Shown piece after piece: positions 54,136 to 62,566 of a DNA stretch of 64,000 nucleotides (positions are counted from its first letter, which is position 1; each line of letters begins with the position of its first letter). The notes beneath the pieces are model-generated. The model was not told where the DNA came from. It worked only from the letters and a program-made list of their open reading frames with translations, and ran no database searches. This stretch comes from Methanocella arvoryzae MRE50 (GTDB taxonomy: Archaea; Halobacteriota; Methanocellia; Methanocellales; Methanocellaceae), in the NCBI RefSeq assembly GCF_000063445.1, contig NC_009464.1, positions 1,116,001-1,180,000 on the forward strand, in the 5' to 3' direction. A program made the position numbers and the translations under genes.

Positions 54136-54732
54136 ATGAGCCTGCTTTACGTGTTTAAACCCCTTAAGGACCGGACATTGATGCCGATCAGTTGTGCTCT
54201 TCATAGGGCGGGAGTAACGCCTAATATGGTCACTTCTGCCGGACTGCTGATGTCTGTGATCGGGGGGCTGCTCGCCGCTTCAGGTCAGCTCTACGCGGGC
54301 ATTGCCGTCTTCACATTGGGGGCTATAATGGATGCGGTCGACGGCTCACTGGCCAGAGTGTCGGGTGAGTGTACAGAGTTCGGCAGGTACTACGATAGCG
54401 TCTGCGACCGGCTTTCTGAGCTGTCCTTCGTGGCGGGAGCAATTATAGGAGGTGCCCCGGTCATGGCGCTTGTCGTCATAGCGGGCTCGTGCCTGCTGCT
54501 GACTACCAGAATTTTCAATCATAGAAGAGGACTGAACTCGAACGCCGCCTGCTTCGGCAGGCCCGAGCGGTTGGCCCTCTTAATTGCAGGGCTGCTGGCG
54601 CCGGCGCCGTACGATCTGGCCCTGTTTACGATCGCCGGCCTGCTCTGCCTGATCTCTTCGGGCCAGGCGTTGGCGTCAGGTTTACGTAGCAGCAGAGATC
54701 AAAATGAAAGCACAGGGCCGGTTTTAAGATGA
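54136..54732 (+). CDS. CDP-alcohol phosphatidyltransferase
   Basis: 198 residues with about five or six hydrophobic helices. The family motif is complete: DAVDGSLARVSGECTEFGRYYDSVCDR. It makes a phospholipid from a CDP-activated lipid and an alcohol, or the reverse use of such a headgroup. GGAG lies six bases before this ATG, so an earlier GTG is not used. Its stop overlaps the ATG of the TetR gene by four bases. Confidence 0.88.
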   Translation: MSLLYVFKPLKDRTLMPISCALHRAGVTPNMVTSAGLLMSVIGGLLAASGQLYAGIAVFTLGAIMDAVDGSLARVSGECTEFGRYYDSVCDRLSELSFVAGAIIGGAPVMALVVIAGSCLLLTTRIFNHRRGLNSNAACFGRPERLALLIAGLLAPAPYDLALFTIAGLLCLISSGQALASGLRSSRDQNESTGPVLR

Positions 54733-56214: not shown

Positions 56215-56493
56215 CTAGCCGTCGTTCTCGTAATACAGCTTCGGCGGAGGGAACAGATCCGGGTAGTCCCGGGCAATGCGGTCGGGGTCTTTGTGAATGT
56301 TGCGTAGCGCCCTCAGCGCCTCGGCACATTCTTTGGGATCCCGAGTTTCTCTCACCCGGTCCACGATGGAGCAGGTGCCTTTTTCGGAGAACGCCCTGCA
56401 GGTCTGGTCGCAGATCTGGTTCTTTTCGAAGAAGCACTTTTTGAATGCGATCTTCTTGCCGCCGCCGAACAATTTCTTCAGGAATCCGAACAC
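56215..56493 (-). CDS. Small cysteine-containing protein of unknown function
   Basis: 92 residues, FGFLKKLFGGGKK start, then four cysteines (KKCFFEKNQICDQTCRAF and GTCSIVD) that could bind a metal or cluster. GTG start with GAGGT six bases upstream, which overlaps the stop codon of the ABC gene. Not recognised, probably real. Confidence 0.6.
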   Translation of the reverse strand: MFGFLKKLFGGGKKIAFKKCFFEKNQICDQTCRAFSEKGTCSIVDRVRETRDPKECAEALRALRNIHKDPDRIARDYPDLFPPPKLYYENDG

Positions 56494-56502
56494 TCTGGTA
56501 CC

Positions 56503-57375
56503 TCAGTTAGTCATGAGCTTGACGTAGATGTCTTCCAGCGCCGACTGGCGGACCGACAGGTCGACCAGCGCCCAGTTGTTGTCGGAGATGTTGTGGAGCA
56601 GGCCGGCGATTTCGCTTATGTCGGCGGTCTTGAACACGTAGTTGCCCTCGTGCTGCTCATAATCGAGGCTCTGATCTGCCTTAAAGATTACCTGGTACTC
56701 CCGGATGCCCAGGCTCCTGCGGATAGCCTCCATATTGTCGCAGACCAGTAGCCTGCCGTCCTTCATGATGGCCACCCGGTCGCAGATGTACTCGATGTGG
56801 AAGAGGTTATGGGCGCTGAGCACGATGGTCTTGCCCTGGCCCCGGAGCTGCTTGAGGTAGTCGATGATGAAGAAAGAGGTCAGCGGGTCGAGGCCCGAGT
56901 TGGGCTCGTCGAGGATCAGGAGGGATGGGTCGTGGAGCAGGCATCTCGCGATGGCTACCTTACGCTTCATGCCCTTTGATAGTTCCCCGGTCAGCTTTTT
57001 CTGGTCCTTCAGCTTCAGCGAGCCGAGCAGCTCGTCTATCCGGGCCTTAGCGGCTTTCTTAGGCATGCCGTACAGCTCGGAGAAAAACAGCAGGTACTCC
57101 TCTACAGTCATGTTCTCGTACAGGGGGCTCTCCTCTGGCAGGTAGCCGATCTGCCGCTTGACGTTTGTGCTGTCCCGGGACATGTCCCTTCCCAGGATCT
57201 CCACTGAGCCGGCCGTGGGAGCCACCAGGCCCACCATCATCTTTAGCGTGGTGCTCTTTCCCGCGCCGTTGTGGCCAATGATGCCAAGAATTTCGCCTTG
57301 CCGGACCTCCAGGTTCAGATCGCTGACCGCGGCAAAATGTTTATATAATTTCGTAACCCCTGTCAGTTTAATCAT
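56503..57375 (-). CDS. ABC transporter ATP-binding protein
   Basis: 290 residues. Walker A GHNGAGKST, signature ELSKGMKRKVAIARCL, Walker B LLILDEPNSGLD and a downstream His switch LSAHNL. It faces two permease genes across a 99-bp divergent gap, so the three form an ABC-2 exporter. The in-frame extension upstream to 57420 lacks a ribosome binding site. Confidence 0.9.
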   Translation of the reverse strand: MIKLTGVTKLYKHFAAVSDLNLEVRQGEILGIIGHNGAGKSTTLKMMVGLVAPTAGSVEILGRDMSRDSTNVKRQIGYLPEESPLYENMTVEEYLLFFSELYGMPKKAAKARIDELLGSLKLKDQKKLTGELSKGMKRKVAIARCLLHDPSLLILDEPNSGLDPLTSFFIIDYLKQLRGQGKTIVLSAHNLFHIEYICDRVAIMKDGRLLVCDNMEAIRRSLGIREYQVIFKADQSLDYEQHEGNYVFKTADISEIAGLLHNISDNNWALVDLSVRQSALEDIYVKLMTN

Positions 57376-57474
57376 TATCTTTCCAATAAATAGAATAATT
57401 GATAATCTTTTCGTGCGCATCGGGGCGGGGGCGAACGAGCGAGTGAGTGAGCGAGCGGGCGTGATGGGGTTCCG
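57376..57474. promoter_or_regulatory. Divergent ABC promoter with GAGY tetranucleotide tract
   Basis: Between divergent genes. It has an AT-rich half (AATAAATAGAATAATTG) and a tract of about seven GAGY-like tetranucleotides at 57433-57461 (ACGAGCGAGTGAGTGAGCGA). Confidence 0.6.
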
Positions 57475-59313
57475 ATGAAGAATATACTGATCATCGCTAC
57501 GAGGGAAGTAAAGCGCTTTAGCACCCGTTTCCGGGGCAACTCCCGGGCCCTGATCCTGGCGATCATCGCCGCCTCGCTGCTCATCTCTTATTTCGTCTCC
57601 CAGGGCGGGCTGACGCTGAGCAAGGGCATGTACACGGTGGGAGTGTCTGCCGATGGGCCGGCCATCGACGACAGCCGCTTCCGTCTGGTTTACACAGACC
57701 CTTCGACGGGGTACAATCTGGTGCGTAACAACTCCATCGATGCCTACGTGAGTGCAGATACGGTAACAGGCAGGAGCGATTCCCGGTCGAGGTATGCGAT
57801 AGGCGCGCTCAAGCAGTACCTGGAAAAGCAGGAGCTCGAAAGGATCACCGAGCAGTATGACATCGACAGGGCTTATCCCCTACGCATCGAGACTCATTAC
57901 TTAAACGTCAATACTACCGCGCAGGCCGCTGGCGGGTCAATCACGGACCTCATCGGGCATATACCAGAGCCGGCCGCATCGGAAGCCCCGGTGCCGACCC
58001 CTACGACGAGCGCTCCAGTAGTAACAGTGACTGCGATTCCTGCTCCGACGCCAACTGGTGGCGGCACCGGCAGCACTGGCAGCACCACAGATGCGGCTGT
58101 GAAAGCACAGCTTGAGCAGGCGATGAACGGCACCCAGCCTAAGTTCAAGGCCCAGTTCGTCTCGGAGAACGAGATCATCGTCCCCTCGCTGATGAACCCG
58201 CCGGTGCCCCTGTCCCAGGTCATCATTGCGTTCCTCTACATCGTGCCTATCTTCTTCATCAGCGTGTTCTTCACGAGCAGCTTCATGGACGAAAAGATCA
58301 ACAGAAAGCTGAACATCCTCATGTCGACGCCCGTCTCTGCCCTCGACGTCATCATGGGCAAGATGCTGCCCTATCTGGCCTTCGCCCTCGTCGTCATCGT
58401 GGGCGTGACGCTGGCGCTGAACGGCAACCTGCTGCTCGCCATCGCCATCTTCACCCCGATCGTCCTCTTTATCTTCGCCGTCTACCTGATGGTGGCGCTG
58501 TTCTACCGCACGTACAAAGACCAGACGTTCTTCTCTATGGCGGCGATCACCTTCATCACCGGGTACCTCGTGTTCCCCGCCCTGTTCACCGGGATCAACA
58601 ACCTGAGCTTCATATCGCCCCTGACGCTGGCGGTCCAGATGTACCGGGGGGAAAGCTTCGGCCTGCTGGAGTACACGTTCTCCACCCTGCCGATGTACCT
58701 TGTGTTCCTGCTGGCGATGTACGTGGGCGTGCGCATCTTCAACGAAGAGTACCTGCTGAGCTACGGGCCGCTATACAGGAAAGTCGGGGACGCGATCTAC
58801 CTGGCCATCAACAAGAATCATGTTTATCTGTCGATCGCCCTGCTGAGCCTGCTCCTGATACCAGCCGTCTTTATGGTCCAGCTCATCATCGTAGCCCTGG
58901 CGACCAACATCCAGCAGATGTTCCTCATGTTCATCGTGCTCCTCGTCTTCAGCGCTCTCGTGGAAGAGATCGCCAAGTCCGCCGGCATCGTGATGCTGCT
59001 GGAGAACGGCATGCTCAAGTCTTACAAAGAGATCGTGGCGCTCTCGTTCCTGTCCGCCCTCGGGTTCCTGATCGGGGAAAAGGCGCTGCTGTACCTGTCG
59101 CTGGGCATCATCTCCGGCAACGTCCTCATGGAGGCTATCAACGACGCGGGACTTTTACTGATACCGCTCGTCGCGCACTTCATCTTCACAACCATCGTAT
59201 GCGTCTCTACGAGGAAGCTGGGCACGAAATGGTATATTGTGGCCGTGCTGGCGGGCACGCTGGTGCACACGACCTATAACATTTACAACTTAAGAGCTGC
59301 GGGGTTATTCTGA
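57475..59313 (+). CDS. ABC-2 permease fused to a PrsW-like intramembrane protease domain
   Basis: 612 residues. Part one (to about 430) is an ABC-2 permease: one N-terminal helix, a large extracellular domain with a Thr/Pro-rich segment, then about six helices (FFTSSFMDEKINRKLNILMSTPVSALDVIMGK). Part two (about 440-612) has PrsW-type marks: VEEIAK (Glu pair near 497), LGFLIGE (Glu near 535), LVAHF (His near 568) and HTTYN (His near 598). PrsW proteins are glutamic intramembrane proteases. ATG with GGGG five bases upstream. Confidence 0.82.
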   Translation: MKNILIIATREVKRFSTRFRGNSRALILAIIAASLLISYFVSQGGLTLSKGMYTVGVSADGPAIDDSRFRLVYTDPSTGYNLVRNNSIDAYVSADTVTGRSDSRSRYAIGALKQYLEKQELERITEQYDIDRAYPLRIETHYLNVNTTAQAAGGSITDLIGHIPEPAASEAPVPTPTTSAPVVTVTAIPAPTPTGGGTGSTGSTTDAAVKAQLEQAMNGTQPKFKAQFVSENEIIVPSLMNPPVPLSQVIIAFLYIVPIFFISVFFTSSFMDEKINRKLNILMSTPVSALDVIMGKMLPYLAFALVVIVGVTLALNGNLLLAIAIFTPIVLFIFAVYLMVALFYRTYKDQTFFSMAAITFITGYLVFPALFTGINNLSFISPLTLAVQMYRGESFGLLEYTFSTLPMYLVFLLAMYVGVRIFNEEYLLSYGPLYRKVGDAIYLAINKNHVYLSIALLSLLLIPAVFMVQLIIVALATNIQQMFLMFIVLLVFSALVEEIAKSAGIVMLLENGMLKSYKEIVALSFLSALGFLIGEKALLYLSLGIISGNVLMEAINDAGLLLIPLVAHFIFTTIVCVSTRKLGTKWYIVAVLAGTLVHTTYNIYNLRAAGLF

Positions 59314-60353
59314 TGGGCGCCTTCTGGACCATATTCAATAAAGAGATCAGGGCGATAGGCAAGGAAAAGACGATCGTGCTGGCCATCGTGATCCAGCTGA
59401 TCATCGCCTCGCTGTCCTCCGTCATCCTGATCGGCCTCATGTCGTTCTACGACCCGGGCACCATCGGCCAGAACACCAACATAAAGCTTAACGTCGGCAT
59501 CATCTGCGCCGAAAACACACAGCTGATCCAGGACCTGCGGCGGGCGCACGTCAACACGACATACTACGACAACCCGGAGATCGCCCAGCAAGCCTTCGCC
59601 GGAGGCAGCCTCGACGCGGTTATCTATGTACCGCAGTATACGGGCGGCCCCATGGATTTGAAGCTGTTCCTGCCCGAATCCGACTCCAGGAGCACCGTCA
59701 TCCTGATGGTGCTGAAAGAGCCGCTCAAGAAGTTCGAAAACCAGCTCCGGACAGCCCAGGGCATAGACATCAAATTCGCGGAAGTCACAGGCCGGTCGAG
59801 CACGACCTACGAGTTCCTGTTCTCCTTCATCGTACCCATGCTCATGCTGTTCCCCGCCTTCATCGCCGGCAGCATTGTGATCGACACCCTCTCCGAAGAG
59901 TTCGAGAGCAAGACAATAGACACCCTGCTCGCCGCCCCCGTAGCTCTCAAAGATATGATCGCCGGCAAGCTCGCCGCATCGATCTTCATCGCCGTAGTCC
60001 AGTGCATCCTCTGGTCGATACTCCTGTCCTTCAACAGGATATACATCCAGAACGTAGTCCTCGTCATCGTCATGGCCGGACTGATAGCCGCTTTCGTAGC
60101 CACCGGCTCAGCCCTGATAGCGCTGTACTTCAAAGACAGGGAAAGATCCCAGTTCATCTACTCCGTCCTCCTCATCACCGTCGCCAGCCTCAGCTACCTC
60201 GTCGAGCCCTCGCCCATCGGCCTCATCACCAGGCTCGCCACCGGAGCGCCGGGCGTCGGGGCGATCAACGTTTTACTGTACGTCATACCGCTCGTCTTGC
60301 TGCTCGCTGCGATAATGTTAAACACTAAGCGGCTTGTTGCGCTGAAAGCTTGA
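59313..60353 (+). CDS. ABC-2 permease subunit
   Basis: 346 residues, about six helices with the extracellular domain between the first two. EEFESKTIDTLLAAPVALKDMIAGKLAAS is the ABC-2 coupling helix segment. One-base overlap with the upstream permease (TGATG). It probably pairs with that protein as a heterodimer. Confidence 0.85.
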   Translation: MGAFWTIFNKEIRAIGKEKTIVLAIVIQLIIASLSSVILIGLMSFYDPGTIGQNTNIKLNVGIICAENTQLIQDLRRAHVNTTYYDNPEIAQQAFAGGSLDAVIYVPQYTGGPMDLKLFLPESDSRSTVILMVLKEPLKKFENQLRTAQGIDIKFAEVTGRSSTTYEFLFSFIVPMLMLFPAFIAGSIVIDTLSEEFESKTIDTLLAAPVALKDMIAGKLAASIFIAVVQCILWSILLSFNRIYIQNVVLVIVMAGLIAAFVATGSALIALYFKDRERSQFIYSVLLITVASLSYLVEPSPIGLITRLATGAPGVGAINVLLYVIPLVLLLAAIMLNTKRLVALKA

Positions 60354-61512: not shown

Positions 61513-62217
61513 CTACCTCGTTTCCACGAGATACTTCCCCAGCCCCATCACAGCCCCGGTGCCGATCCCCAGGCCTACCAGCATGGCAAGCCCTGGCAGC
61601 CATCCCATGTAGGGGAGATAGTGAGAGTGAATGAGGAAGATGCTCGTATGGTACAGCCCTAAGCCCAGCGCACCTCCCGCCACGAATCCTATCGACCCCA
61701 GTATGACGAAGAGTTGGGACCTTTTCAGCGGCAGCCCGAAGATCAGGCCTACTGCCACAATGCCTGTCGCGAAGAAGAGGCCGCCCGAGAGATGGTGTCC
61801 TTTCATGATCAGCTCAGTCGCGACGACCATGAAAGCGAGGCCAGTGGCGTACCCGGCGGCGCTTAACGCAGCCATTTTGAGCCGGTTTCCGGGCAGGATG
61901 TCGAGACAGTAAGCGCCGGAAAACCCGAAGATCAGGCCGCCGGCGATCCAGAACAGAATGCCTGTGTAAGAGCCGCTGGACATCCAGGACAGAATGTCAG
62001 TAGAGACGCCAGAGAAGCCGGGGAAGAAGACCTGGAGCACGCCCCACAGGAACCCGCCGAGGGCGAAGCCGATGATGCCGGGCAGGCTGTATTCGGCAAT
62101 AAAGCGCAGCTCATCAGCCGGGTTTACGGATTTACGGCGAGAGACCGCCATCCACCGGCCTGTTTCACCCGGGATCAGTTCACTATCGTGCTGTTGTACT
62201 CCAGAATCGAGCGACAT
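61513..62217 (-). CDS. Membrane protein of unknown function
   Basis: 234 residues with about six helices rich in Gly (GIIGFALGGFLWGVLQ, GYATGLAFMVVATELIMKGHH, GGALGLGLYHTSIFLIHSH). GGGAG lies five bases before the ATG at 62217. Not recognised. Confidence 0.7.
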   Translation of the reverse strand: MSLDSGVQQHDSELIPGETGRWMAVSRRKSVNPADELRFIAEYSLPGIIGFALGGFLWGVLQVFFPGFSGVSTDILSWMSSGSYTGILFWIAGGLIFGFSGAYCLDILPGNRLKMAALSAAGYATGLAFMVVATELIMKGHHLSGGLFFATGIVAVGLIFGLPLKRSQLFVILGSIGFVAGGALGLGLYHTSIFLIHSHYLPYMGWLPGLAMLVGLGIGTGAVMGLGKYLVETR

Positions 62218-62254
62218 GTCAACTCCCGCCACAGTCCGCGTACTTGAGAAGGCC

Positions 62255-62566
62255 TTATTTCTCCCGGAGCCAGATCTGGACTTCGTCCTCGCCCGCGACC
62301 TCGAACCGGTCCGCCAGGCTCTTCCGTATCTCCGCAACAAGTTCCTCGGAGCTCAATCCGTGGCCTTCTCCGGCCACGATGGCTATCTGGCGGTCGCCAG
62401 TCGTGATGTCGAGGCCGAAGGTCATGAAGTCAGTATCCTTGTCGAACATCAGCTCTTCTCCGATGGTGATGAAATCGCACTGCTGCAACGGAGCTTTCAC
62501 TTCGATGATCAGTCGCTTCTGGTAGTTGGTGCTCTTGTCCACTACGTTGATGATGATCCGGTCCAT
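62255..62566 (-). CDS. Small protein of unknown function
   Basis: 103 residues, mixed alpha/beta with alternating hydrophobic strands (RIIINVVDKSTNYQKRLIIEVKAP, RQIAIVAGEGHGLSSEELVAEI). No ribosome binding site precedes the ATG; TTTATCTCTCG-like AT-rich DNA lies about 40 bases upstream, so the transcript may be leaderless. Not recognised. Confidence 0.55.
   Translation of the reverse strand: MDRIIINVVDKSTNYQKRLIIEVKAPLQQCDFITIGEELMFDKDTDFMTFGLDITTGDRQIAIVAGEGHGLSSEELVAEIRKSLADRFEVAGEDEVQIWLREK

What the first reader, a model, noticed from the sequence alone, without database searches (positions are those of the whole stretch)
57475..59313. ABC-2 exporter permease fused to a PrsW-like intramembrane protease
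The C-terminal 170 residues carry the spaced motifs of PrsW (VEEIAK, LGFLIGE, LVAHF, HTTYN) directly after a complete ABC-2 permease. This would couple export to intramembrane proteolysis, for example release of an exported peptide or cleavage of a regulator. The fusion is in frame with no sign of a break, and the partner permease at 59313 lacks it.
Basis: partly seen in the sequence, partly recalled or inferred. Interest (0 to 1): 0.6.

Follow-up and report, generated by a model that had tools for sequence, protein, structure and literature searches.

The report
Archaeal exporter with built-in membrane protease
In this methanogen, and in about half of the related archaea sampled, one subunit of a membrane export pump carries an intact membrane-embedded protein-cutting enzyme of the PrsW type, so cutting a molecule in the membrane and pumping it out are probably done by one machine whose cargo is still unknown.

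Summary
ORF 57475-59313 (612 aa) is one intact frame: a NatB/ABCA-like ABC-2 permease half (elbow helix, TM1, exodomain, TM2-6) followed by a PrsW-type glutamate intramembrane protease domain (about residues 447-608). The domain alone passes Pfam PF13367 (24.8 vs 23.5 bits); whole-protein scans miss it, and NCBIfam has no model for the family. Homologues lie in 146 of 295 Halobacteriota genomes (61 of 107 genera). In 61 aligned sequences E497, E498, K501, E535, K536, H568 and H598 never vary, and residue 602 is N or D. AlphaFold places them on the four C-terminal helices. The gene belongs to a three-gene exporter: ATPase 56503-57420(-), the fused permease, and a paralogous permease without the protease (59313-60353). 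The second permease adjoins the fusion in all 60 loci read; no other neighbour is conserved, so no substrate is visible. Two of 251 Chloroflexota genomes also have it, probably by transfer. Protease activity and coupling to export are inferred. Best reading: a cut-and-export machine, a single-protein counterpart of Eep plus EcsAB. An ABC permease/CPBP fusion is already curated (NF041647), so this is a PrsW-type archaeal variant of a known kind.

The parts
57475..59313 (+). Fused ABC-2 permease / PrsW-type intramembrane protease, 612 aa
   Evidence: Open frame; homologues in 146/295 Halobacteriota genomes; AF2 model pLDDT 79.4, pTM 0.72
57475..58740 (+). ABC-2 half (residues 1-422): elbow helix 2-18, TM1 22-44, exodomain about 45-135, disordered Pro-rich linker 136-240, TM2 246-275, cytoplasmic helix 278-284 (probable coupling helix), TM3-6 289-421
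   Evidence: AF2 secondary structure; ABC2_membrane_3 27.3 bits, sub-threshold; 28/56 homologues match ABC2_membrane_3; paralogous to partner permease, BLASTP E 1e-5
58813..59298 (+). PrsW-type glutamate intramembrane protease domain (residues about 447-608)
   Evidence: PF13367 24.8 bits over cut-off when scanned alone; hhalign to 24 stand-alone archaeal PrsW, probability 96.1; domain model pLDDT 91.9, pTM 0.86
58963..58977 (+). EExxK motif (E497, E498, K501) on helix 482-510
   Evidence: Invariant in 61 aligned homologues; PrsW motif definition in PMC4602095
59077..59082 (+). E535-K536 of GFLIGEK on helix 517-545; EK instead of the EN of most stand-alone PrsW
   Evidence: Invariant; stand-alone copies show EN
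59176..59178 (+). H568, the extra PrsW histidine absent from CAAX proteases
   Evidence: Invariant; definition in PMC4602095
59266..59280 (+). HxxxN motif (H598, N602)
   Evidence: H598 invariant, residue 602 N or D only
56503..57420 (-). ABC ATPase subunit, divergently transcribed; alignment with relatives suggests the true start is the internal Met at about 57375
   Evidence: ABC_tran 125 bits; intact Walker A, LSKGM signature, Walker B and H-loop; adjacent in most loci
59313..60353 (+). Partner ABC-2 permease without protease domain, 346 aa; ATG overlaps the fusion's stop by one base
   Evidence: ABC2_membrane_3 62.5 bits; adjacent in all 60 homologous loci; junction TGATG

Best explanation
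This is one half of a heterodimeric ABC-2 exporter (ATPase, permease 1 with protease, permease 2) whose first permease carries a catalytically competent PrsW-type glutamate intramembrane protease at its C-terminus. Shown by sequence and model: the fusion, the intact active-site signature, the conserved three-gene unit, and mostly single-copy inheritance. Inferred: the protease cuts a membrane-embedded substrate, most likely a hydrophobic peptide or the signal/anchor segment of a membrane-attached precursor, and the ATP-driven permease pair expels the product. This is a one-protein counterpart of the Gram-positive pair of intramembrane protease (Eep/RseP) and ABC exporter (EcsAB), which turns lipoprotein signal peptides into exported peptides.
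For: Single open frame. PF13367 over cut-off for the domain alone. Profile-profile probability 96.1, E 2.8e-9, motifs collinear with stand-alone PrsW. E497/E498/K501/E535/K536/H568/H598 invariant in 61 sequences, at 22-66% identity to the window protein. Helical-bundle domain model pLDDT 91.9. Module conserved: second permease in 60/60 loci and ATPase adjacent in most, or a 38-47% identical ATPase elsewhere in the genome. Intact ATPase motifs. No broken fusion in the sampled set. Precedent for functional coupling: Eep and EcsAB both needed for linear peptide production in S. aureus (PMC7157817); EcsAB regulates RasP in B. subtilis (PMC7478892).
Against: No substrate gene is conserved beside the module. 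No biochemical evidence exists. The PDB fold searches gave no significant hit: whole protein best E 0.049 to a mycobacterial ABC efflux pump; domain best E 1.3 to gamma-secretase APH-1. The Pfam margin over cut-off is small and only 12 of 44 domains reach E<=0.01. Many conserved intramembrane proteases act in signalling rather than export.
Confidence: 0.45

Rival explanations
1. Regulated proteolysis: the protease cuts a membrane-anchored regulator when the exporter engages its substrate, so the pump acts as a sensor and the cut as the signal, as PrsW does with RsiW in Bacillus.
For: The founding PrsW is a site-1 protease for an anti-sigma factor (PMC9263693; PMC4602095); a TetR gene lies at 54729 in the window.
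Against: No regulator gene is conserved next to the module in 60 loci; sigma/anti-sigma pairs are not an archaeal feature (general knowledge).
Confidence: 0.2
2. Sorting/anchoring: the protease trims C-terminal or N-terminal anchors of surface proteins, as the CPBP protease myxosortase does, and the ABC-2 part moves a lipid or the protein moiety.
For: A glutamate intramembrane protease (MrtX) sorts MYXO-CTERM proteins (PMC11980579); archaeosortase, the known archaeal anchor-processing enzyme, is present throughout the host phylum.
Against: Archaeosortase A is present in 107/107 genera of the same sample while the fusion is in 61/107, so no profile link; no CTERM protein gene was seen conserved beside the module.
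Confidence: 0.15
3. Quality control: the domain degrades misfolded partner subunits or clears stuck membrane peptides without a dedicated substrate.
For: Mostly single copy, widespread, no cognate substrate gene.
Against: Absent from about half of the sampled relatives, so not a general need; would not require fusion.
Confidence: 0.12
4. Pseudo-protease: the domain is a structural or assembly module without activity, like APH-1 in gamma-secretase.
For: The domain's top, non-significant fold match is APH-1.
Against: All expected catalytic residues are invariant in 61 diverse sequences, which a structural relic would not need.
Confidence: 0.07

Closest known systems
NCBIfam NF041647, ABC transporter permease subunit/CPBP intramembrane protease
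   Same: A NatB-like ABC-2 permease with a C-terminal glutamate intramembrane protease; the partner permease here matches its ABC part
   Different: The protease there is CPBP (EExxxR type), here PrsW (EExxK plus extra His); the fused protein here has no match to the model and nothing in this genome nears its 435-bit cut-off
PrsW family (PF13367), B. subtilis PrsW
   Same: EExxK, glutamate on next helix, extra histidine, HxxxN/D; profile match
   Different: The stand-alone PrsW proteins are not attached to a transporter; the fused family always has EK where the archaeal stand-alone copies have EN
Eep/RseP plus EcsAB (PptAB) peptide processing-export pathway of Firmicutes
   Same: Intramembrane protease and ABC exporter acting in series on membrane peptides (PMC7157817)
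   Different: Separate proteins; the protease is an S2P metalloprotease, not a glutamate protease; EcsB homology not tested
NatAB/ABCA-like ABC-2 exporters (PF12698)
   Same: Permease topology with exodomain after TM1, partner and ATPase
   Different: Extra C-terminal protease bundle on one permease only
Myxosortase MrtX and other CPBP/CAAX proteases
   Same: Glutamate intramembrane protease superfamily (PMC11980579)
   Different: EExxxR motif, no extra His, MrtX is a 239-aa protein not fused to an ABC permease

Membership tests
PrsW-type glutamate intramembrane protease (PF13367) | Pfam gathering score 23.5 bits | tested here: met
   24.8 bits for the domain alone; missed when the whole protein is scanned
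PrsW-type glutamate intramembrane protease (PF13367) | EExxK motif | tested here: met
   E497, E498, K501; invariant in 61 sequences
PrsW-type glutamate intramembrane protease (PF13367) | Extra histidine on the next-to-last core helix, absent in CAAX proteases | tested here: met
   H568 invariant; definition from PMC4602095
PrsW-type glutamate intramembrane protease (PF13367) | HxxxN/D motif | tested here: met
   H598 invariant, 602 N or D
PrsW-type glutamate intramembrane protease (PF13367) | Active-site residues brought together in the fold | tested here: inconclusive
PrsW-type glutamate intramembrane protease (PF13367) | Proteolytic activity | not testable with these tools
   Needs an experiment
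CPBP/CAAX protease (PF02517, EExxxR) | EExxxR motif and PF02517 score | tested here: not met
   EExxK instead of EExxxR; no PF02517 match in 44 domains
NF041647 ABC permease/CPBP fusion | Curated cut-off 435 bits | tested here: not met
   No match for the fused protein; best in genome about 39 bits
ABC-2 exporter (PF12698 type) | Permease fold with elbow helix, six TM helices and exodomain | tested here: met
   AF2 layout; the window protein itself is under the Pfam cut-off (27.3 vs 31.6 bits) but 28/56 homologues match the family
ABC-2 exporter (PF12698 type) | Cognate ATPase and second permease | tested here: met
   Adjacent genes with intact motifs, conserved
EcsAB/PptAB exporter | Homology of the permease to EcsB | not tested
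   Only used as a functional analogy

The most novel reading that the evidence does not exclude
A dedicated archaeal cut-and-export machine: the fused protease matures membrane-embedded peptides (signals or toxins) and the same complex secretes them, making it a peptide-secretion system present in about half of the sampled Halobacteriota genomes and not yet described.
Probability: 0.3. Interest if true: 0.78.

Novelty: new variant of a known kind. Interest (0 to 1): 0.55.

Why it matters
Intramembrane proteases and ABC exporters are known to work in series in Gram-positive peptide signalling, but as separate proteins. A single polypeptide that combines them, conserved with an intact active site across methanogens and haloarchaea, makes the coupling directly testable. 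It would give archaea a candidate peptide maturation and secretion route. It is also overlooked: whole-protein scans miss the protease, NCBIfam has no model, and the one RefSeq-annotated copy seen here (Haladaptatus plasmid) is named only 'ABC transporter permease subunit'.

Tried and rejected
Artefact or frameshift fusion: rejected, open frame with conserved full-length homologues. CPBP rather than PrsW: rejected, no PF02517 match and EExxK plus extra His. Link to archaeosortase by phylogenetic profile: uninformative, ArtA is in all genera. Neighbouring substrate gene: none conserved (ORFs under 60 aa were not examined). Anti-phage system: no PADLOC match for either permease; the ATPase hits are generic ATPase similarity. 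PDB sequence searches: nothing relevant. Fold searches: an ABC efflux pump as best match for the whole protein and APH-1 for the domain, both non-significant; the viral library gave nothing meaningful. The first genome-contig scan with the broad alignment failed for lack of conserved stretches. Pei et al. 2011 (PMC3155266) was not readable here, so an earlier mention of such a fusion there cannot be excluded. Adjacent ATPase missing in some loci: a similar ATPase (38-47% identity) lies elsewhere in those genomes.

Full report
Observation. The ORF at 57475-59313 is a single open frame of 612 aa. The C-terminal 190 residues alone reach 24.8 bits for PF13367 PrsW-protease against a curated 23.5. 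A scan of the whole protein misses it, and among 56 full-length homologues only one shows it at E<=0.01, although 12 of 44 isolated domains do. This is why automatic annotation overlooks the domain.

Is it more than chance? The four-motif pattern is absent from 200,000 shuffles and from 1,527 other ORFs of the related loci. Profile-profile alignment with 24 stand-alone PrsW domains of the phylum gives probability 96.1 and E 2.8e-9, with EExxK, GFxxxE, H and HxxxN all collinear. In 61 aligned homologues E497, E498, K501, E535, K536, H568 and H598 never vary and residue 602 is N or D. A second set of 65, from named contigs, keeps E497, E498, E535, K536, H568, H598 and N602 invariant and K501 in at least 90%. 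The published PrsW signature is EExxK, an additional histidine absent from CAAX proteases, and HxxxD (PMC4602095). The domain therefore belongs with PrsW and not with CPBP/Rce1 (EExxxR). An EK pair in place of the EN of the stand-alone archaeal copies marks the fused subfamily.

Anatomy. AlphaFold2 (pLDDT 79.4, pTM 0.72) gives an elbow helix, TM1, an exodomain, a disordered Pro-rich linker (136-240), TM2 to TM6, then a helix 433-444 and the protease bundle with the motifs on helices 482-510, 517-545, 562-582 and 584-608. The domain alone folds with pLDDT 91.9. Fold searches against the PDB gave no significant match. The best for the whole protein was a mycobacterial ABC efflux pump (E 0.049). 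The best for the domain was APH-1 of gamma-secretase (E 1.3), a known distant relative of PrsW (PMC4602095, PMC3482391).

The module. The divergent ATPase at 56503-57420 has intact Walker A, signature, Walker B and H-loop. The partner permease at 59313 overlaps the fusion's stop codon by one base and is a paralogue of the fusion's ABC half (E 1e-5); it has no protease domain. In 60 homologous loci the second permease is always adjacent and the ATPase usually so, divergent in most methanogens and co-directional with overlapping ends in the haloarchaeal set. In the eight genomes where it was not found adjacent, a 38-47% identical ATPase lies elsewhere. In the named-contig set 76 of 80 loci have the ATPase and 77 of 80 the permease nearby (some contigs end close by). 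No other neighbour recurs in more than 9 of 60 loci.

Distribution. 146 of 295 Halobacteriota genomes, 61 of 107 genera. The tree largely groups sequences by host family, with patchy absence. Two of 251 Chloroflexota genomes have it. Two Chloroflexota contigs carry the whole module and branch with the Methanocella family, one of them among ordinary bacterial-looking genes. Transfer is the likeliest reading; mis-binning is not fully excluded.

How it most likely works. Shown: fusion, intact signature, exporter context. Inferred: proteolysis, and coupling of proteolysis to transport. The best analogy is the Gram-positive route in which the intramembrane protease Eep and the ABC exporter EcsAB are both needed to make and release linear peptides from lipoprotein leaders (PMC7157817), and in which EcsAB affects RasP (PMC7478892). 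Other glutamate intramembrane proteases process peptides or anchors (SilX, PMC9298176; myxosortase, PMC11980579). The alternatives are signalling proteolysis, anchor sorting, quality control, or an inactive structural domain; they are weighed in the Rival explanations section.

Novelty. ABC permease/CPBP fusions are curated (NF041647), so the idea of such a fusion is not new. The PrsW-type version has no NCBIfam model, and the nine literature searches made here returned no description of it. The review that lists H. volcanii membrane proteases names only a PrsW-like HVO_0408 (PMC9263693); whether that one is fused was not determined. Verdict: new variant of a known kind, real and conserved, mechanism untested.

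Noticed in passing
window 56215-56493 (-): Small 92-aa cysteine-containing ORF directly downstream of the ATPase with no Pfam family over cut-off; a homologue lies at the same place in one other Methanocella-family genome (L036).
   Followed up: partly
window 61513-62340 (-): Membrane protein of up to 275 aa with no Pfam match over cut-off; its true start codon may lie further in.
   Followed up: no
L095, L096 (Chloroflexota MAG contigs): Complete ATPase/fusion/permease module at about 50% identity to the window, apparently transferred between methanogens and Chloroflexota.
   Followed up: partly
G000:C1:693323-693922 and 2070445-2071029 (L002, L001): Two further PrsW-domain proteins in the same genome: a 511-aa form with an N-terminal extension and a 439-aa form.
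   Followed up: partly
window 57375-57420 (-): The ATPase ORF starts about 15 codons upstream of the position that aligns with relatives; an annotated start here may be too long.
   Followed up: no
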